Below are positions 4,631 through 62,958 of a DNA stretch of 64,000 bases, in pieces. The notes beneath the pieces were generated by a model. The model was given only the letters and a program-made list of their open reading frames with translations, did no database searches and was not told the DNA's origin. The first letter of the stretch is position 1, and each line of letters begins with the position of its first letter. This stretch comes from Microlunatus endophyticus (GTDB lineage: Bacteria > Actinomycetota > Actinomycetes > Propionibacteriales > Propionibacteriaceae), in assembly GCF_014646195.1 (NCBI RefSeq), contig NZ_BMMZ01000009.1, forward strand, positions 62,001-126,000, in the 5' to 3' direction. Both the position numbers and the translations under genes were made by a program.

Positions 4631-5686
4631 TCAGCCCTGGAGCTTCTTCAGCCCGGCCTCGAGTTCGTCGAGCACGGCGAGCGCATCGCCGTAGCCACCG
4701 ACCAGAAGATCGGGGAACGGGACGAGTCGGCCGGCCTTGACCGCCGGTAGCTGCTTCCAGAGCTTCTGGGCGAACAGCTGCGGCCCCTTGTTGTTGGGCT
4801 TGTCGTCGTAGTCGGCATAGAAGCCGATCACACCAGCATCGTCGAGCTTTCCGATCTGCTCGTACGACACGGCAAGGATCCCGGCGCCGGGATCCTTGCT
4901 GGCGGTCGCCGCGGTGGTCGCGCCGGCGAAGCGAACGCCGGCGTCGGCCAGCACCCGACCGGGATCGGTCCTCGGTCCGTAGACCCAGAACTGCCCGGCA
5001 GTGAAGCCGCCCTGCAGAATGTCCCAGGTGTAGGCGGCCAGCTGGGTCGCGTACGCCTTCTTGATCTCGGCGCTGCGGGTGACCAGCCGGGTCTTGAGCG
5101 CATCCAGCTGGTCGGTGCGATTGACGGCGTCGGCGACAATTGCGGCGGTGCCCTGCCAACTGGTGGCCGGGGCGATCACGGTCGGAGCCAGTGCGGTGAG
5201 CTTGCTGTAGACGTTGGTGTTCCACTCGTAGTCGAGTCCGATGATCAGGTCAGGGTTGAGGGTCGCGACCTTCTCGACGTCGATGGCGCCGGCGGTGCCG
5301 ACCTTCGTCGCGGCGTCCCATTTGGCGCGGTAGCGCGGGGAGATGTATTCGCTGCCCTGGTCGTAGACGCCGATCGAGGCCAGCCCCAGGTCGTACAGCG
5401 TTGCGGTCGCAGCGGGCTGGATCGAAACCACCCGCTTGGGATCCGCGGGAACCCGGACACTGCCCTTGGCGGTCTGTACGGTGCGAGTGCTCGGCACCGA
5501 CGGCGTTGACGAGGCGCTCGGATCGGACGCACCGCAGGCGGCCAGGCCGAGGAGGGTTGCACTGCCGACACCGCCGGCCAGGAGACCACGACGGGTCAGC
5601 TGGTCGATGATCCGTACGAATTCGGTCTCGACATCGGTCCCGGTGTCGGTCCGGGTGTCGCGGCGCTCGGGCGCGAGCAGGGTCAT
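4631..5686 (-). CDS. iron-siderophore ABC transporter substrate-binding lipoprotein
   Basis: The 351-residue protein is a FecB/FepB/FhuD-type binding protein with a twin-arginine-like signal (LTRRGLLAGG, arginines 32-33) and a lipobox ending at C51 (LGLAAC). Later segments TVQTAKGSVRVPADPKRVVSI and NPDLIIGLDYEW are typical of ferric-siderophore binding proteins. It would sit on the outer face of the membrane and deliver a ferric siderophore. The ATG has GGAGG upstream. It carries its own iron box, between its start and the stop of the ABC gene before it, and so is probably iron-repressed independently of the ABC pair. Confidence 0.9.
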   Translation of the reverse strand: MTLLAPERRDTRTDTGTDVETEFVRIIDQLTRRGLLAGGVGSATLLGLAACGASDPSASSTPSVPSTRTVQTAKGSVRVPADPKRVVSIQPAATATLYDLGLASIGVYDQGSEYISPRYRAKWDAATKVGTAGAIDVEKVATLNPDLIIGLDYEWNTNVYSKLTALAPTVIAPATSWQGTAAIVADAVNRTDQLDALKTRLVTRSAEIKKAYATQLAAYTWDILQGGFTAGQFWVYGPRTDPGRVLADAGVRFAGATTAATASKDPGAGILAVSYEQIGKLDDAGVIGFYADYDDKPNNKGPQLFAQKLWKQLPAVKAGRLVPFPDLLVGGYGDALAVLDELEAGLKKLQG

Positions 5687-5726: not shown

Positions 5727-7547
5727 CTAATCCAGATCTGCGCCGGGCTGGCGACCGGTGCTGAAAGATCTCGTTCCGGACCAGCCCGCCCAGAGATCGG
5801 CGTACTCGTCGGACCTGAGGAGCAGTTCCTCGTGGGTGCCGGAGGCGGCGATCCGACCGTCAGCCATCACGATGATCAGGTCGGCGCCGCGGACCTGGCT
5901 GAGCCGGTGGGCGACCACCACCGCCGATCTGCCTCTGGTGATCGCCGCGGCCGCCCGGTCGAGGGCCCGAGCGGCGTCACTACCCGCCTCGGCAGTGGCC
6001 TCGTCCAGGATCACCACCGGCGGGTCGAGGAGCAGCACCCGTGCCAGCGCCATCTGCTGCGCCTGGCTGGCGGTCAGCGCAACTCCGCCACCACCGACGG
6101 CGGTGTCGATCCCGTCGGCCATCGCTTCGACCCACGCTGTGGCCCCGACCGCGTCGAGCGCCTGCCGCAGCTGGTGATCGGACGCCTCCGGCACCGCCAG
6201 TCGGAGATTGTCCGCGACCGAGCCGGCGAAGACATGCGTCTCCTGGGTGACCAGAGCGATGACCTGTTGCGGCAGGTCGAGCCGCTCCAGTCCGACGCCG
6301 TTGTATTCGACCGTTCCGGACCGCGGCTCGCGGATGCCTGCCAGCAGAGAGGCCACCGTCGACTTCCCGGACCCGGTCGTCCCCACCACGGCGACCGTAC
6401 GACCCGGTTCCAGCCGCAGCCCGACGTCGCGGACCGCGTCCGGCCCGTCGCCGTAGGCGAACCGGAGGTGATCGGCCACGAGTAGCCCTCCGGGGCCGGT
6501 CGACGCGGGGTGCCCGGGCAGCCCGGCCCGACGCCGCTGGTCGGCGACACCGATCAGCCGGGCCAGACCCGCGCCCGCTTGCTGGATGCTGTCGAAGACA
6601 CCAAGCACCGTATTGATCGGATCGAAGAGCCGTGCGAAGAACAGCGCGGCCGCGGTTGCGGCCCCGATCGAGGCCAGGTCCTCGCGCACGAGCAGGAAGG
6701 CGACCAGCAGGATCGCGCCCAGGCCGACGAACTCGGCGAGGTTGAGCCGGCCGAAGAACCGGGTGGCGATCCGGGTCGCACGGAATTCGTACGCCATCGA
6801 GTCGGCCGACGCGGCTTCGATCCGGTCGCGCTGCCAGTCGCCGAGACGTAGGGCACGCAACGTCGTCAGTGATCCGAATCCGGTGAGCAGGGCGGATGCG
6901 CGACGCCCGTCGGCGATCCGCCCGGCGGCGTAGACCGGCCGGGAGTTACGCAGATACCAACGCAGCGTGTGGGCCTGGATCGGGACGGCGAGCAGGCCGG
7001 CGAGGGCGAACCGCCAGTCGAGAGTGGCCAGGCCGGCCAGGGTGGTGAGGATGGACAGCGCGGCGCCGACGAAGCTGCCCAGCGCTCCCGACGCGGCGTC
7101 GGAGACCAGGTCGACGTCACCCGACACCCGCGAGACCAGGTCGCCGGTGCCGGCCGCTTCCACAGTGTCGATGGGCAGTTCGACGGCAGCCGAGACGGCC
7201 TCCTCGCGCAGCCGGGCGACGGCCGGAAGCACCAGTCGCGCGAGCAGCACCTCCGACAACCAGGCGACAACGGCCGAGGCGACGGCGGCGCCCGCCAACA
7301 AGATCATCGGCGCTACGACGGCGCTCGGGTGCCGCCGGTCGGCGATGGCCTGGGTGATCCATCCGATGGCCACCGGTCCGGCGAGCCCGAGCAGGCTGGC
7401 GATGATCATCACCACCACGGTGATGATCATCAGCGGCCACCGGTCCCGGATCAGCCCGCGAACGTAGGTGGCGATCCGCCGACCGGTGGCGATCGGCAGC
7501 AGACCGGCCAGCGGTTCCTGATGCCGAGGCTCGAGGGTTGCGGTCAT
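5727..7547 (-). CDS. heterodimeric ABC transporter subunit, six-helix permease fused to ATPase (siderophore-type, YbtP/YbtQ- or Irt-like)
   Basis: The 606-residue protein has an exporter-fold membrane domain followed by an ATPase. Walker A (GTTGSGKST), the Q-loop (VTQE), Walker B with catalytic Glu (VVILDEAT) and the switch His (VVAHRLS) are canonical. The signature motif is not: TASQAQQ stands where LSGGQQ is expected. The partner gene, overlapping by ATGA, has the reverse pattern, so the two form a heterodimer with one competent ATP site. Exporter-fold pairs next to AraC regulators and siderophore genes (YbtPQ, IrtAB) import ferric siderophores. Here too import is more likely than export, but direction is inference. 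The ATG at 7545-7547 is chosen for coupling to the upstream gene. Confidence 0.85.
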   Translation of the reverse strand: MTATLEPRHQEPLAGLLPIATGRRIATYVRGLIRDRWPLMIITVVVMIIASLLGLAGPVAIGWITQAIADRRHPSAVVAPMILLAGAAVASAVVAWLSEVLLARLVLPAVARLREEAVSAAVELPIDTVEAAGTGDLVSRVSGDVDLVSDAASGALGSFVGAALSILTTLAGLATLDWRFALAGLLAVPIQAHTLRWYLRNSRPVYAAGRIADGRRASALLTGFGSLTTLRALRLGDWQRDRIEAASADSMAYEFRATRIATRFFGRLNLAEFVGLGAILLVAFLLVREDLASIGAATAAALFFARLFDPINTVLGVFDSIQQAGAGLARLIGVADQRRRAGLPGHPASTGPGGLLVADHLRFAYGDGPDAVRDVGLRLEPGRTVAVVGTTGSGKSTVASLLAGIREPRSGTVEYNGVGLERLDLPQQVIALVTQETHVFAGSVADNLRLAVPEASDHQLRQALDAVGATAWVEAMADGIDTAVGGGGVALTASQAQQMALARVLLLDPPVVILDEATAEAGSDAARALDRAAAAITRGRSAVVVAHRLSQVRGADLIIVMADGRIAASGTHEELLLRSDEYADLWAGWSGTRSFSTGRQPGADLD

Positions 7548-14497: not shown

Positions 14498-15369
14498 CTG
14501 ACTTCTTCCACGCCCGCGTCATCAAGGTGCAGTGGCTCGGCCCGCGCCTGGTCAGGGTGAGCTTCGGCGGCGAAGACCTGCGAAACTTCTCCAGTACCGG
14601 CTCCCCGGACGAGTCGATCTCTGTGATCCTTCCCCGCCCTGGCGACACGAAGCCGCCGCTCCCGGTGGTGACGGACAAGGGCTGGGATTATCCGGACGGA
14701 GAGGCACCGAGCCGCACCTACACGGTCCGGCGTCACGACCCCCTGACCAGCCAGGTCGTCGTCGAATTCGCGCTGCACACGCGCGGCATCGCGGCCGACT
14801 GGGCGCGACACGTACGACCGGGTGCGGTGGTCGGGCTGTCGGCACCGCACGCCCGCTACCGCCCCGACCCGGACGACCACCGCGTGCAGCTCTTCGGCGA
14901 TCTGCCCGCGCTTCCTGCGGTGGGACGGATCCTCCAGACCCTTGGACCCGATTGCAGCGCCGAGGTGTGGCTCGAGGTCCCGACCCCGGCCGACATGATC
15001 GAGCTCCCCACCGACCCACGGATCAGTGTCAACTGGCACGTGGCCGGCTACGGGACACCGAGGCCGAGCCGGGTCCTGGACCTCGTCGTGGCCGAGGCCG
15101 ACCCGGCCCCCGGCACTCACGTCTGGGTTGCTGCCGAGGCGACACCGGCGCGGCTGGCACGACGCCATCTGCGCCATGAGCTGCACGCACCCTCCAGCCG
15201 CTACACCACGTGCGGATACTGGCGGATGGACCAGGAGGACTGGACCGATCGCTACGAGAAGACCGACCTCGACCTGGTCAGATTGTTCACCAGACTACGA
15301 GAGGACGGCAAGACCGACGACGAGATCGCCGACGCCGTGGATGCCGCTCTGGCCGCAGAGGGTTTGTGA
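14494..15369 (+). CDS. siderophore-interacting protein (FAD-dependent ferric-siderophore reductase family)
   Basis: The 291-residue protein has the SIP layout: an N-terminal FAD-binding barrel (VIKVQWLGPRLVRVSFGGEDL, PSRTYTVRR), then LFGDLPALPAVGRIL, and a C-terminal NAD(P)H-binding-like lobe with VWVAAEATPARLARRHLR and YTTCGYWRMDQEDW. The family releases iron in the cytoplasm by reducing the ferric siderophore. GTG 14494 gives the usual length; a GGGGA precedes it. It is the last gene of the iron-boxed operon. Confidence 0.92.
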   Translation: MTDFFHARVIKVQWLGPRLVRVSFGGEDLRNFSSTGSPDESISVILPRPGDTKPPLPVVTDKGWDYPDGEAPSRTYTVRRHDPLTSQVVVEFALHTRGIAADWARHVRPGAVVGLSAPHARYRPDPDDHRVQLFGDLPALPAVGRILQTLGPDCSAEVWLEVPTPADMIELPTDPRISVNWHVAGYGTPRPSRVLDLVVAEADPAPGTHVWVAAEATPARLARRHLRHELHAPSSRYTTCGYWRMDQEDWTDRYEKTDLDLVRLFTRLREDGKTDDEIADAVDAALAAEGL

Positions 15370-15443
15370 TGCTGAGCACTTAGGGACTTTGGGCACGAGT
15401 CTCGCAGCGCGCCCACGGAGTTCCGGGCTTGGAACGATGATGG

Positions 15444-15701
15444 ATGTCCCAACCGTCTCAACCCGTCGCCGGAGATTCACCCGTGTCACTTGCCCGATTC
15501 CACGTCATGCCGCAGGACGGACTTTGGCGTGTGGTCCGAGTCGGCGCGCTGTTCAAAGGTCCGTACCAAACCCGGGACGAGGCCATCCACGCGGCAAGGA
15601 TCATGGCGCTGCTCACCGAACCGGCCCAGATCCTCGTCCACGATCCGGCGGGCGGTGAGGAGATCGAGACCTGCCACGGCGCGCAGGGGCCCGGTCTTTG
15701 A
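15444..15701 (+). CDS. small DUF2188-like protein
   Basis: The 85-residue product contains the pattern of DUF2188 proteins: HVMPQDGLWRVVRVGALFKGPYQTRDEAIHAARIMA followed, after a gap, by ILVHDPAGGEEIE, here mentioned only by its start and end (residues about 20-75). The function of the family is unknown. It stands alone, 74 bases after the siderophore reductase and before a long structured gap. The start could also be GTG 15483, at the beginning of the conserved part. Confidence 0.6.
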   Translation: MSQPSQPVAGDSPVSLARFHVMPQDGLWRVVRVGALFKGPYQTRDEAIHAARIMALLTEPAQILVHDPAGGEEIETCHGAQGPGL

Positions 15702-16150
15702 GTCCTTGGGCTGAGTTCGGGCTGAGTACCGGCAACCCGGTCGGGTAACCCAAGGTTAAGGTTCCCGCGACTACGGGCGTTCCCCCGGCGCCGATGAGGT
15801 CGCGGGAGCCGCATGTTGGGACGCGAGAGTTCAGGTCGCCAGCCGATGGCTGGCGGGTTCGGCGGGCCGCCCGACGAATTCCCCCGAATTCTCCGTTCGG
15901 GCGGCCCACACGAGTACCACGGGTACGGCGCTGCGAAGCACCCGACGCGCAGCCGCGCGGCCATACCCAGCTCCAGACGAAGCGCTGTCCCAGCCGCTCA
16001 GATCATCTGACGTGTCAGACATTAGCATGAGTGTGTCCGATTTGGACATGTCCTGATTAGGAAATCTCGATGTGATCTCCGTCGCACCGGCACTAGGTGG
16101 CAGCCGCAGCCGAGGACGCGACCGAGGGGCGTAGCCGTCGTCGGGCAAGG
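15702..16150. other. gene-free, strongly structured intergenic region
   Basis: No convincing gene is present. Three successive inverted repeats occur: 15760-15771 with 15799-15810 (12 base pairs, one G-U in RNA), 15837-15844 with 15848-15855 (CGCCAGCC, GAT loop, GGCTGGCG), and 15864-15874 with 15897-15907 (GGGCCGCCCGA with its exact complement, the loop holding two GAATTC). A smaller palindrome, CTGACGTGTCAG, lies at 16007-16018. The first copy of the 46-nt element follows at 16019. The region may encode a structured RNA or act as a bidirectional terminator between convergent genes; there is no T-tract. Confidence 0.6.
16019..16064. repeat. 46-nt conserved element, copy A
   Basis: This is one of three gapless 46-nt relatives (others at 32582 and 62913), matching copy B at 36 and copy C at 33 of 46 positions. 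All share TAGCA at positions 5-9, the half-sites GTCC-N5-GGAC, the perfect palindrome GGACATGTCC, and a terminal AGGAA. This copy lies between convergent genes. Read on the minus strand it offers an extended -10-like TGCTAATGT. Confidence 0.65.
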
Positions 16151-16975
16151 TCAGACCTTCACGCCACCGCTGACCAGTCCGCTGACGATATGCCGCTGCA
16201 TCAGAAGGAAGAAAATGACCATGGGCACCAGCACAATGACGGTCATCGTCATGAAGAGCGGCCAATTGACCGCGAACTCGCCTACTGCCGTGTAGACCTG
16301 AAGTACCAGAGTGCTCTTCGTGGGAGAGCTGATGAAGACCTGCGGCGTCAGGAAGTCATTCCAGACCCACATCGTCTGGAAGACGCCAACGGTGACCAAG
16401 ATCGGGCGGATCAGCGGCAACATGATGCTCCAGTAGATCCGAAACGGTCCTGCTCCGTCTATCCGTGCTGCCTCGATGATCTCGTTCGGAATCGTCCTCA
16501 TATAGCCTTGGATGAGGAAATAGCAGAAGATCGCTCCGGCGGCATAAATCACTATGAGACCGTTCAGCGAGTCCACCAGATGAGCTTTCGCCAGGTCCTG
16601 GTAAAGCGGAATGAGCGTGGTCTGGAATGGCACCACGAACCCGATCAGCAATGCCGCTCCCAGTAAGCGGGTCAGCCGCGCTTTACTGAGCACCATGCCG
16701 AACGCCGCCAAGGAACCGATCAAGAGCATGAGGGCTACGGCTGCCGCCGTGACATATACCGTGTTCAGAAAGCTCTGCACGATCGGGATCGTGTGGAAAA
16801 CGCCTGTGTAGTTCTCGGTGTAGAGCTTGGTCGGCAGGCCGAGTGGCGATCGCCCGCTCTGCTCCGGTGTTTTCAGCGTATTGACGACTATGTAATAGAA
16901 CGGCAGCCCTACCAGGCACGCAACCGCAATCATGACGATGCTCAGTACGACACTGCGTCGACGGGATCTCTTCAT
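16151..16975 (-). CDS. carbohydrate ABC transporter permease, MalG type
   Basis: The 274-residue membrane protein has six predicted helices and the EAA loop IIEAARIDGAGPFRIYWSIMLPL that docks to the ATPase. It is the second channel subunit of a CUT1-type importer. The ATG at 16973-16975 overlaps the preceding permease stop (ATGA). No dedicated ATPase gene is nearby, so a shared MsiK-like ATPase elsewhere is likely, as in many actinobacteria. Codon choice is somewhat less GC-rich than in neighbouring genes. Confidence 0.9.
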   Translation of the reverse strand: MKRSRRRSVVLSIVMIAVACLVGLPFYYIVVNTLKTPEQSGRSPLGLPTKLYTENYTGVFHTIPIVQSFLNTVYVTAAAVALMLLIGSLAAFGMVLSKARLTRLLGAALLIGFVVPFQTTLIPLYQDLAKAHLVDSLNGLIVIYAAGAIFCYFLIQGYMRTIPNEIIEAARIDGAGPFRIYWSIMLPLIRPILVTVGVFQTMWVWNDFLTPQVFISSPTKSTLVLQVYTAVGEFAVNWPLFMTMTVIVLVPMVIFFLLMQRHIVSGLVSGGVKV

Positions 16976-17934
16976 AGCACCCGTCCCTCGGCACGTCGCG
17001 ACAGAACCATCTGAGTGACCAGGACAGCGATAACGAAAACCATGAACAGTACGGATAGCGCCGAGGCCTGACCGACCTGGCCCAGCGTCAGTCCGTTCTG
17101 CAGGATCCCCTGGGTGATCGTGAAAGTTACGTAACCGGGGCCACCCTTGGTCAGGGTGAACGGCAGGTCGTAGACCTTCAGGCCCGCGGTGGTCAGCAGC
17201 ACCTGGCTGATCAACATAGCCGGCATCAGGAGCGGCAACGTGATGTAAAAGAACTGTTGGCGGGTCGACGCACCGTCGATCATGGCCGCCTCGTAGTAGT
17301 CGCGAGGTATCGACTGCAGGTAGGCCAGATACAGGACCGCGTGCCACCCGGCCTGGGCCCAGACGGCGACGAAGATCACCGAGCCACGGGCGAGCAACGG
17401 ATCCGACAGCCACGGGACCGGGGCCAACCCGAAGAGCGCGTGCAAGATCGCATTCAGCATTCCCGATGCCAGCGGAGACAGGATGAAACTCCATACCAGG
17501 CCGAGAATGGCGACGCTCGGAATGGCCGGGAAGAAGAGCATCGATCTGACGAAGTTGCGGCCGCGGAACTTCTGGTCCAAGATCACCGCCAGCGGGATCG
17601 CGACGATCGTCACGATGATCACGGTGGCGAAGGTGTACACGATCGTGAAGAACAGCGCTGCCCGCAGCGACGGATCGGCGAAGACACTCGCATAGTTCTT
17701 CAGGCCGACGAACTTCGCGGTGGTCGAATACCCGTTGAAGTCGGTGAAGCTGTAATAGATGGATTGGCCCAGCGGTATCAGGAACAGCACCACCAGCACC
17801 GCGATGATCGGTCCGTAGATGATCACCGATGATGCGCTACTTCGCCAGGGCAGCCGACGCACCGGCCCGCGGGCGTCGGAACCGCGGGCCGGAGTGCCGT
17901 CAACGTTGGTGATCACGTCAGTTGCGGCTGTCAT
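16972..17934 (-). CDS. carbohydrate ABC transporter permease, MalF type
   Basis: The 320-residue protein has about 30 hydrophilic N-terminal residues followed by six helices and the EAA-type motif YYEAAMIDGASTRQQF before LPLLMPAM. It forms a heterodimeric channel with the next gene. It starts six bases after the binding-protein stop. Substrate identity cannot be read from the sequence, though the linked epimerase and oxidoreductase genes point to a monosaccharide, polyol or oligosaccharide. Confidence 0.9.
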   Translation of the reverse strand: MTAATDVITNVDGTPARGSDARGPVRRLPWRSSASSVIIYGPIIAVLVVLFLIPLGQSIYYSFTDFNGYSTTAKFVGLKNYASVFADPSLRAALFFTIVYTFATVIIVTIVAIPLAVILDQKFRGRNFVRSMLFFPAIPSVAILGLVWSFILSPLASGMLNAILHALFGLAPVPWLSDPLLARGSVIFVAVWAQAGWHAVLYLAYLQSIPRDYYEAAMIDGASTRQQFFYITLPLLMPAMLISQVLLTTAGLKVYDLPFTLTKGGPGYVTFTITQGILQNGLTLGQVGQASALSVLFMVFVIAVLVTQMVLSRRAEGRVL

Positions 17935-32306: not shown

Positions 32307-32390
32307 TCAATGATTGCGGTGCTGCAAACGCCAGTTGTTCACGACGAGCACCATCACGGTGATGGCCAAAGACAGAAACAGAAACCGCAT
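32307..32390 (-). CDS. candidate 27-residue single-helix membrane protein upstream of the polysaccharide operon
   Basis: The ORF reads MRFLFLSLAITVMVLVVNNW and then RLQHRNH: one hydrophobic helix followed by a basic tail, as expected for a membrane microprotein with its C-terminus in the cytoplasm. A purine-rich GGGGGAGAG lies about nine bases upstream of the ATG. It is in the same orientation as the BcsB-like gene, about 100 bases before it, and cellulose operons elsewhere (BcsF) also contain single-helix peptides. No homology can be claimed. Confidence 0.5.
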   Translation of the reverse strand: MRFLFLSLAITVMVLVVNNWRLQHRNH

Positions 32391-32430
32391 GTCAGTTCAC
32401 TCTCCCCCGAGAATTAGATTTACCTCTGCC

Positions 32431-32504
32431 GTCGCATTCGTGTGGAGCGCTCACGCAGGAGTCCCCCGACGTTCCATCGGATCGCTCCACACGAATGCCG
32501 CGAC
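32431..32504. other. long perfect inverted repeat (RNA hairpin) ahead of the polysaccharide operon
   Basis: CATTCGTGTGGAGCG at 32435-32449 is exactly complementary to 32483-32497, and GTCG (32431-32434) can also pair with CGAC (32501-32504) across a three-base bulge. The loop is 33 bases. It lies between 46-nt element copy B and the 27-residue ORF. It could be a 5'-leader regulator of the minus-strand operon or a terminator; no T-tract is present. The remainder of 32391-32754 shows no other gene. Confidence 0.7.
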
Positions 32505-32581: not shown

Positions 32582-32627
32582 ACAGTAGCAGGGTCGTGTC
32601 CAAAATGGACATGTCCTAATCAGGAAA
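32582..32627. repeat. 46-nt conserved element, copy B
   Basis: It aligns without gaps to copies A and C (36 of 46 identical to each). Its core is GTCCAAAATGGACATGTCC, identical in copy C. It lies 128 bases before the PhyH-type gene on the plus strand and about 190 bases before the microprotein ORF on the minus strand, so it may be a divergent promoter/operator. The minus strand shows TGCTACTGT, an extended -10-like sequence. Confidence 0.7.
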
Positions 32628-43740: not shown

Positions 43741-44402
43741 CGCGGCCCCACCTCGCCTGGGAGCAACCGGGTGTCCCGTACTCCGGTCTCGGTCGCCGGC
43801 AGTTCCGGGCCGGCATCGCCGGCCATGCCACGGGCGAGCCGGCCGACCAACACTCCGGCCGCCGCGGCACCCAGAAGGAACGTTCCCGGACGGCGGCGAG
43901 CGAAAGACCGCAAGCCGTCCAGGATGTCGTTCGGTTCATGGGTCTCCAGCCACTGCGCGATCTCACCGCCGCGCCGGGAAGCGTCCTGGACCAGTCCGGT
44001 CATCGGGCCGGACTGGTCCGAGGCGGAGGCCATGGCGCCGAGTTCCTTGGCAAGTGAGTGGACCGAGCCGGCCAACCGCTGTTGCTGCTGGCCGGCCTGG
44101 GAATTGAATTCGCCGATGCCTTGCCGCAGCAGGTCGCTGGTCTGGTTCTTGGCCTCGGCAGCGACCGTGGCGGCTTGTTGCTTGGTCTCCTCCACCACCT
44201 GCTGGCCGGCCGCCTTGGACGTTTCCTTGATCTCGGCCGCCTGATCCTTGGCGACGTCGGCGGTGGATCCCGGATCACCGGGGCCTCCAGCGTCGACAAC
44301 CGGATCCAGCGCTGGATCCCGAGCCGGATCGCGGACTGGATCGAGGGCTGGATCGAGAGCTGGGGACGGTTGGCGGGGAGGATCGACAGGATTCTGACTC
44401 AT
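43737..44402 (-). CDS. helical membrane-associated protein, YtxH/apolipoprotein-like
   Basis: The 221-residue protein has a Pro/Asp-rich repetitive N-terminus (residues 15-37), a long predicted coiled region (ADVAKDQAAEIKETSKAAGQ; VVEETKQQAATVAAEAKNQ) and one C-terminal hydrophobic segment (GTFLLGAAAAGVLVGRLARG). I recognise the architecture, shared with the DUF3618 protein, but not a named family. ATG 44402 has GGAG five bases upstream. It heads the three-gene operon, with a TetR-type palindrome 35 bases upstream. Confidence 0.8.
   Translation of the reverse strand: MSQNPVDPPRQPSPALDPALDPVRDPARDPALDPVVDAGGPGDPGSTADVAKDQAAEIKETSKAAGQQVVEETKQQAATVAAEAKNQTSDLLRQGIGEFNSQAGQQQQRLAGSVHSLAKELGAMASASDQSGPMTGLVQDASRRGGEIAQWLETHEPNDILDGLRSFARRRPGTFLLGAAAAGVLVGRLARGMAGDAGPELPATETGVRDTRLLPGEVGPR
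44292..44360 (-). repeat. in-frame 12-base degenerate repeat in the YtxH-like gene
   Basis: About five units of a 12-base repeat encode xLDP/xRDP tetrapeptides (ALDPALDPVRDP and on). The units differ at single bases (gctggatcg, actggatcg, gccggatcg), suggesting expansion by slippage. It lies in the presumably disordered N-terminus. Confidence 0.7.
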
Positions 44403-62697: not shown

Positions 62698-62912
62698 TGC
62701 ACCCCCGTTTCAAGATCATCACGATCCCGCACGCCAGGCGCCATCAGCTGCCATTCCGGGGGATCACCCACGGGGCTTCCCCCGATGCCCCATGGGCGAT
62801 CCACCCGAATGTCAAACCGCTGCGCAAGTGCGCGTGCAAGAGAAACCGGACAACCGGTTTCCGGTCAGTGCTTCGGCCGACCCGACACCGGCCGAACCAA
62901 CAACCTGGGATA
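62698..62912. other. structured gene-free interval ahead of the 57-residue ORF
   Basis: No gene is evident. GAAACCGG-ACAA-CCGGTTTC (62842-62861) and TTCGGCCG / CGGCCGAA (62872-62879 with 62889-62896) are two perfect eight-base stems. CGGGGGA (62757-62763) pairs with TCCCCCG (62778-62784), while GGGGC inside that loop (62772-62776) can pair with GCCCC beyond it (62787-62791), a pseudoknot-like arrangement. The third 46-nt element follows at 62913. Confidence 0.6.
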
Positions 62913-62958
62913 ACGATAGCAGCTGGATGTCCAAAATGGACATGTCCGAATTAGGAAG
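62913..62958. repeat. 46-nt conserved element, copy C
   Basis: It matches copy B at 36 and copy A at 33 of 46 positions without gaps, and shares with B the identical core GTCCAAAATGGACATGTCC. Beyond the 46 bases, B and C both continue into a TTGGTCC. It lies upstream of the minus-strand 57-residue ORF and transporter, and 44 bases past the end of the reductase-like pseudogene. The minus strand shows TGCTATCGT. Confidence 0.7.

What the first reader, a model, noticed from the sequence alone, without database searches (positions are those of the whole stretch)
15760..15907. Three consecutive strong hairpins in a 449-base gene-free gap
Stems of 12 (with one G-U), 8 and 11 base pairs follow each other within 150 bases, next to element copy A and away from any coding sequence. 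This density suggests a structured RNA transcribed from element A on the minus strand, or an unusually elaborate bidirectional terminator.
Basis: partly seen in the sequence, partly recalled or inferred. Interest (0 to 1): 0.55.

Follow-up and report, generated by a model that had tools for sequence, protein, structure and literature searches.

The report
G-loop RNA opposing C-loop small RNA
The three hairpins look like parts of a structured RNA made from the minus strand, one of a set of RNAs whose G-rich loops match the C-rich loops of a second set of small RNAs, so one may soak up the other; this is predicted from sequence only and has not been seen in cells.

Summary
The hairpins are real: H1 15760-15810, H2 15837-15855, H3 15864-15907, in a 449-base gap between convergent genes. 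Element A is a TGTCC/GGACA palindrome plus an extended -10 facing the hairpins. I counted 14 such units in 6 of 20 genomes of the genus. GGGGGA lies within 170 nt downstream in 13 of 14, against 2.0% of background segments; it is the most enriched 6-mer. In A it is the apical loop of H3. Of 36 isolated GGGGG runs in the window, the three predicted most exposed are the main hairpins of units C, A and B. The genus also has C-loop hairpins (mostly AACCCCCGAGC), likely sRNAs, unmatched in Rfam. In 9 of 13 operator-type C-loop loci a UCGGGGG motif lies divergently across the operator, against 0 of 14 other C-loop loci. Best reading: A encodes a decoy for a 6C-like sRNA, as RosA is for RoxS. No transcript was shown, H1's G-run is predicted paired, and an orphaned leader is not excluded.

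The parts
16034..16062 (-). Element A: TGTCC/GGACA double palindrome (operator-like part of the promoter)
   Evidence: Exact match 16034-16062, none expected in shuffles; 5 copies in own genome, 3 in G012; alignment A1
16019..16027 (-). Extended -10 TGCTAATGT of promoter A; start of transcription predicted near 16012 (inferred)
   Evidence: Conserved TGnTAnnnT in the aligned copies; coordinates; pattern match 16019-16053. No sigma-70 consensus hit
15921..15968 (-). 5' hairpin of the predicted RNA, loop region with GUCGGGU (15938-15948)
   Evidence: Fold of the minus RNA; similar loop read in units C and G012b; coordinates
15864..15907 (-). H3: main G-loop hairpin, apical UUCGGGGGAA at 15879-15888
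   Evidence: second-best of 16 GGGGGA hairpins; unpaired probability 0.80; model R2, E 0.044 in the window, second best
15837..15855 (-). H2: 8-pair hairpin, loop AUC, no G-run
15760..15810 (-). H1: 12-pair hairpin with CCGGGGGAA in its loop; G-run predicted paired; possible 3' end of the RNA (inferred)
   Evidence: third-best GGGGGA hairpin; unpaired probability 0.01
32582..32625 (-). Promoter of unit B
32434..32498 (-). Unit B G-loop hairpin (GUCGGGGGAC)
   Evidence: (0.76); in the ungapped scan it ranks only 8th of 16
32401..32412 (-). Unit B small hairpin UCUC-GGGG-GAGA upstream of a small ORF
   Evidence: (0.58 in the window context)
62913..62956 (-). Promoter of unit C
62761..62802 (-). 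Unit C G-loop hairpin (AUCGGGGGAA)
   Evidence: best; R2, E 7.9e-07; this hairpin was a row of R2; 0.80

Best explanation
The hairpins are the body of an RNA of about 255 nt transcribed leftwards from element A (start predicted near 16012, end at or beyond H1). It belongs to a family of G-loop RNAs driven by a TGTCC/GGACA operator-promoter, whose hairpins present (U)YGGGGGA in loops. The likely job is to base-pair with the AACCCCCGAGC loops of a C-loop sRNA (6C-like; one copy in this genome has a CRP-like site upstream) and so titrate it away from G-rich target sites. Shown by computation: the hairpins, the promoter family, the loop motif and its enrichment, the C-loop hairpins, and the divergent C-loop/G-motif arrangement in other species. 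Inferred: transcription, loop-loop pairing, decoy function, and the strand of the C-loop RNA.
For: Promoter family with extended -10 facing the hairpins (12 exact matches in 6 of 20 genomes, 0 control matches). GGGGGA within 170 nt in 13 of 14 units against 737 of 36,953 background segments; top 6-mer of 1,547, reverse complement in 2 of 14. The most exposed GGGGG runs of 36 in the window are the main hairpins of C, A and B. C-loop hairpins in 20 of 20 genus genomes by model R2, 26 of 30 loci read being of C-loop type, including C6:188593 and C1:185578 of this genome. UCGGGGG is the complement of CCCCCGA. UCGGGGG lies divergently across the operator in 9 of 13 operator-type C-loop loci and in 0 of 14 other C-loop loci. 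A stands alone between convergent genes with no supported ORF behind it.
Against: No expression data. Sigma-70 scan negative. H1's G-run is predicted paired (0.01), and so are the first-site runs of G003, G005, G011b, G012c (0.01-0.05) and, less so, C9end (0.17). The duplex energy of A's loop with the C-loop, -16.2 kcal/mol, is reached by about 0.1% of window positions, and at least 22 separate sites in the window score better, so complementarity alone is not specific. Only 7 nt pair perfectly. Units B, C and C14 are followed by small ORFs, which fits target leaders as well. All 20 genomes have R2 matches, so co-occurrence of the two RNAs discriminates nothing. The 14 units and the 9 divergent loci include related copies.
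Confidence: 0.45

Rival explanations
1. Leader or orphaned leader: the family consists of 5' leaders of small genes (targets of the C-loop sRNA or otherwise regulated), and A is a copy that has lost its gene.
For: B and C14 precede a 27-aa membrane peptide, C a 57-aa ORF; B has a G-loop at the ribosome-binding site; A has no supported ORF behind it.
Against: No shared downstream gene across units; G011a and G012b also look free-standing; UCGGGGG sits opposite C-loop sRNAs across a shared operator in 9 of 13 loci, where an antagonist fits better.
Confidence: 0.25
2. Elaborate bidirectional terminator between convergent operons, with no trans function.
For: Convergent genes on both sides; strong stems on both strands.
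Against: No U-tract after H1 or H3 on either strand; does not explain the conserved promoter or the loop motif downstream of it.
Confidence: 0.13
3. Protein-binding RNA: the G-loops are sites for an unknown RNA-binding protein, in the way CsrB or RsmZ bind CsrA.
For: Repeated GGA-containing loops under a palindromic operator; a GerE (LuxR-type) regulator beside unit G011a.
Against: CsrA absent from 20 of 20 genus genomes; no candidate protein known; the complementary C-loops would be unexplained.
Confidence: 0.12

Closest known systems
RosA (Bacillus subtilis) and RsaI (Staphylococcus aureus), RNAs that bind C-rich sRNAs
   Same: Free-standing RNA with G-rich regions facing C-rich regions of sRNAs; control by a transcription factor of its own (passages of PMC8216469).
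   Different: Different phylum; here the G-runs are in hairpin loops behind a TGTCC/GGACA promoter, in several copies, and in some species opposite the C-loop sRNA across one operator; no function shown. No sequence comparison with RosA or RsaI was made.
6C RNA / B11 (RF01066)
   Same: The partner RNA has C-rich hairpin loops; in this genome one copy has a CRP-like site. 6C has two stem-loops with typically six C each and was reported to belong to the GlxR network in C. glutamicum (passages of PMC4046766); B11 loops act on a G-tract 5' UTR (passages of PMC10470900).
   Different: RF01066 matches 0 of 20 genus genomes at E<=0.001, and 8 loci including seven or more C-loop loci give no 6C match at E<=1. 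Many C-loop copies here have a single hairpin. Unit A carries G-rich, not C-rich, loops.
CsrB / RsmY / RsmZ
   Same: Several hairpins with GGA in loops, palindromic site upstream (recalled).
   Different: No CsrA in the genus; the loop is UYGGGGGA, not ANGGA (recalled consensus).

Membership tests
Sponge sRNA (RosA/RsaI type) | G-rich regions complementary to the C-rich region of an sRNA of the same cell | tested here: met
   UCGGGGG against CCCCCGA of C6:188593; but energy not specific
Sponge sRNA (RosA/RsaI type) | Free-standing transcript with its own promoter | tested here: inconclusive
   Promoter family by comparison; sigma-70 scan negative; no RNA data
Sponge sRNA (RosA/RsaI type) | Lowers activity or level of the sRNA in vivo | not testable with these tools
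   Needs bench work
6C RNA (RF01066) | Match to the Rfam covariance model | tested here: not met
   0 of 20 genomes at E<=0.001; unit loci give no 6C match at E<=5
6C RNA (RF01066) | Two stem-loops with C-rich loops on the transcribed strand | tested here: not met
   On the strand faced by promoter A the loops are G-rich
CsrA-sequestering RNA | CsrA encoded in the genome | tested here: not met
   PF02599 in 0 of 20 genomes at E<=0.01; found in 3 of 14 control genomes
Intrinsic terminator | GC-rich stem followed by a U-tract | tested here: not met
   0 found in 15360-16160 on either strand; flanks of H1 and H3 read
5' leader of a small gene | ORF behind the hairpins on the same strand | tested here: inconclusive
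   For A only ORFs overlapping the hairpins or antisense to DUF2188 were listed; present in B, C, C14

The most novel reading that the evidence does not exclude
The genus carries a two-sided RNA circuit: C-loop sRNAs and dedicated G-loop antagonist RNAs, in some species made divergently from one TGTCC/GGACA operator, in others (this genome) dispersed as several G-loop RNAs against one or two C-loop sRNAs. Unit A would be a pure antagonist. Both RNA sets are unmatched in Rfam.
Probability: 0.4. Interest if true: 0.8.

Novelty: new variant of a known kind. Interest (0 to 1): 0.6.

Why it matters
If right, C-rich-loop sRNAs of an actinobacterial genus have built-in antagonists under related transcriptional control, and loop-loop pairing between two defined RNA sets becomes directly testable in a group where few sRNA partners are known. 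The one literature search made for sponge RNAs in this phylum listed 12 of 170 papers, and the words 'sponge rna' occurred in none of those 12 (listing only); that is not proof that none is described.

Tried and rejected
Rejected or set aside. (1) 6C as the identity of A or as its partner in the strict sense: RF01066 in 0 of 20 genomes. (2) CsrA-binding RNA: no CsrA in 20 genomes. (3) A known RNA family: no Rfam match at gathering score in the window; eight unit loci gave only four sub-threshold microRNA matches at E<=5; eight loci around R2 hits gave one sub-threshold snoRNA match at E<=1. (4) G-runs as ribosome-binding sites of one consistent ORF: no consistent ORF follows. (5) An orthologue of A: besides the element itself, one search gave three short pieces (33-46 nt) in other genomes, all within the DUF2188 ORF. 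(6) A wider spread of the promoter: 198 family genomes, matches only in G000 and G012; 391 genomes of the order gave 13 matches, 12 in the genus, with 3 control matches; the one outside (G221) has no GGGG run in 260 nt. The named-genome scan gave two matches in unrelated organisms, taken as chance; own-genome records may be hidden there. (7) Covariation in direct relatives of the units: two pairs with double changes in a 2-row and in a 3-row set, reached by 135 and 111 of 500 shuffles, so these prove little. (12 of 12 pairs with double changes) is partly circular, since its rows were chosen because they fold.

Dropped or not counted. Several weaker R1 matches have no GGGGG(A/T) within 400 nt on either strand (L035, L036, L048) or only distant ones and were not counted as units. 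In the divergent count the misses L083, L099, L101, L102 are included; the operator call was loose for L079, L083, L092, L102. The search word was GGGGG(A/T) and in its control, TCGGGGG or GGGGGA. L113 was fetched but not read out by the filter. Of the 8 loci with a CRP-like site none has TAnnnT in the searched interval; a -10 there was only read by eye.

Names recalled and from no call: extended -10, CRP/GlxR site consensus, ANGGA, GacA-type sites. The organism's name was not found; family make-up and genome sizes suggest Propionibacteriaceae, perhaps Microlunatus (inference).

Full report
Observation. The three stems are present at the stated places, in a 449-base gap between a DUF2188 ORF (15444-15701, +) and the end of an ABC permease ORF (16151, -). 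The cluster folds better than all 200 shuffles on the + strand and better than 198 of 200 on the - strand. Stems of this length occur elsewhere in the window. There is no Rfam match, no tRNA, no U-tract terminator and no sigma-70 consensus promoter.

Element A. Self-comparison shows that 16019-16064 resembles 32582-32627, and part of it 62928-62957. A pattern search with up to 2 mismatches found 5 copies in the own genome and 3 in G012, none in the 18 other genus genomes searched, and no control match. Read in the right direction, these eight copies share a double palindrome followed by an extended -10, TGnTAnnnT in seven and close to it in G012b. In unit A it points left, through the hairpins. 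A sequence-only model built from them gave weaker matches in other genomes (15 of 20 genomes at E<=1), and a variable-gap pattern then gave 12 exact matches in 6 of 20 genomes with 0 control matches: G003, G005, G007 and G011 have the same promoter, mostly with a longer spacer. Among 391 genomes of the order one match lay outside the genus and has no G-run behind it; there were 3 control matches.

What follows the promoter. With the two looser G012 copies there are 14 units. GGGGGA occurs within 170 nt in 13 of 14, against 737 of 36,953 background segments (2.0%); the exception, G012a, has GGGGGT. Within 200 nt it is the most enriched of 1,547 6-mers; its reverse complement occurs in 2 of 14. 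TCGGGGG(A/T) occurs in 8 of 14. The window holds 16 GGGGGA on both strands; the three best enclosing ungapped hairpins are C, A-H3 and A-H1, while B, whose stem has bulges, ranks eighth. By ensemble folding of 36 isolated GGGGG runs, the three most exposed are C (0.80), A-H3 (0.80) and B (0.76). The A-H1 run is predicted paired (0.01), as are the first-site runs of G003, G005, G011b and G012c (0.01-0.05) and mostly that of C9end (0.17). So two kinds exist: loop-exposed runs, and runs behind a 5' hairpin in a conserved GGGGGATGTGA context (G003, G005, G011b, C9end, G012c). Unit A also has a 5' hairpin with GUCGGGU (15938-15948), similar to C and G012b.

Units differ in what lies next. B and C14 precede a 27-aa membrane peptide found in 1 of 20 genomes, this one; C precedes a 57-aa ORF. 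In G003 an M4 protease with an emfourin domain lies about 800 nt downstream, and an emfourin ORF downstream in G005; similar ORFs in G011b and G007 were judged by eye. A, G011a and G012b look free-standing. A GerE (LuxR-type) regulator lies beside G011a; HTH proteins with weak matches lie near G005 and G007 (the GerE match of the latter is below Pfam's cut-off), and the similar-looking G003 protein has no Pfam match. What binds the operator is unknown.

The partner. Eight hairpins with a UCGGGGG loop gave model R2. It matches 20 of 20 genus genomes, 1 to 16 times at E<=0.5, and 7 of 175 family genomes outside the genus at E<=0.001. Of 30 loci read, 26 are better read on the other strand as a C-loop hairpin, 24 of them AACCCCCGAGC; four carry a G-type loop. 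Reasons for that strand, over the 26 loci: TAnnnT 27-35 nt before the C-run in 14; a CRP-like site in 8, none of which has the TAnnnT; a TGTCC/GGACA-like operator in 8; T-runs after the hairpin in 6, of which the copies of G013 and G014 have a clear stem before them. The strand is therefore likely, not certain. In a 10-row set 157 of 160 cells pair, 10 of 16 pairs change on both sides, and 0 of 500 shuffles reach the covariation score; the rows are related. Rfam does not match it at E<=1 in the eight loci tested. This genome has two such hairpins, C6:188593, with a CRP-like site, and C1:185578, behind a gene ending.

The link. UCGGGGG is the complement of CCCCCGA. The duplex of A's loop with the C-loop is -16.2 kcal/mol, reached by about 0.1% of window positions, and at least 22 separate sites score better; complementarity alone is not specific. 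The stronger clue is arrangement: in 9 of 13 operator-type C-loop loci a UCGGGGG motif, mostly AUCGGGGGAUC, lies 69-104 nt across the operator and reads divergently; in 14 other C-loop loci it was never seen. The nine come from a few genomes and include related pairs, and the operator was loosely defined in some. Shared control and opposite loops are what a regulator and its antagonist would show.

Comparison. RosA and RsaI have G-rich regions that bind C-rich sRNAs; RosA is described as a sponge, for RsaI this was still open in that paper (passages of PMC8216469). 6C has two C-rich stem-loops and was reported in the GlxR network (passages of PMC4046766); the related B11 represses a 5' UTR with a G-tract through its C-rich loops (passages of PMC10470900). 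Unit A would work like a RosA-type sponge; membership cannot be claimed, because the defining effect on the sRNA is untested. It is not 6C and not a CsrA-binding RNA.

Verdict. That the hairpins belong to a minus-strand RNA of this promoter family: about 0.75. That it acts chiefly as a decoy for the C-loop sRNA: about 0.45. Not shown: any transcript, any pairing, any effect.

Noticed in passing
L078-L104, L107 (30 loci; 26 of C-loop type): A C-loop hairpin, likely a short sRNA, in every genus genome searched, in up to 16 copies by model R2, some in tandem about 51 nt apart; not matched in Rfam.
   Followed up: partly
window 32310-32390 (-) and G000:C14:93525-93605 (-): A 27-aa one-helix membrane peptide behind units B and C14, found in no other of 20 genus genomes; resembles small type I toxins by eye only.
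   Followed up: partly
L071 (G003), L072 (G005), L073 (G011b), L076 (G007): M4 protease and/or emfourin ORFs near the units; Pfam-confirmed in G003 (M4 and emfourin) and G005 (emfourin), by eye in the others.
   Followed up: partly
L026 (G012c unit): ORFs upstream look like conjugation ATPases (by eye); the orthologous own copy lies at the very end of contig C9.
   Followed up: no
L031, L044, L055 and units C9end, G012c: Shared GGGGGATGTGA after a 5' hairpin; it contains AUG directly followed by UGA. Meaning unknown.
   Followed up: no
window 4870-4901, 7401-7431, 17862-17892, 43987-44020: Other strong inverted repeats found in the stem scan.
   Followed up: no
window 15444-15701: Small DUF2188 ORF directly behind a siderophore uptake operon; short matching pieces in three other genus genomes.
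   Followed up: no
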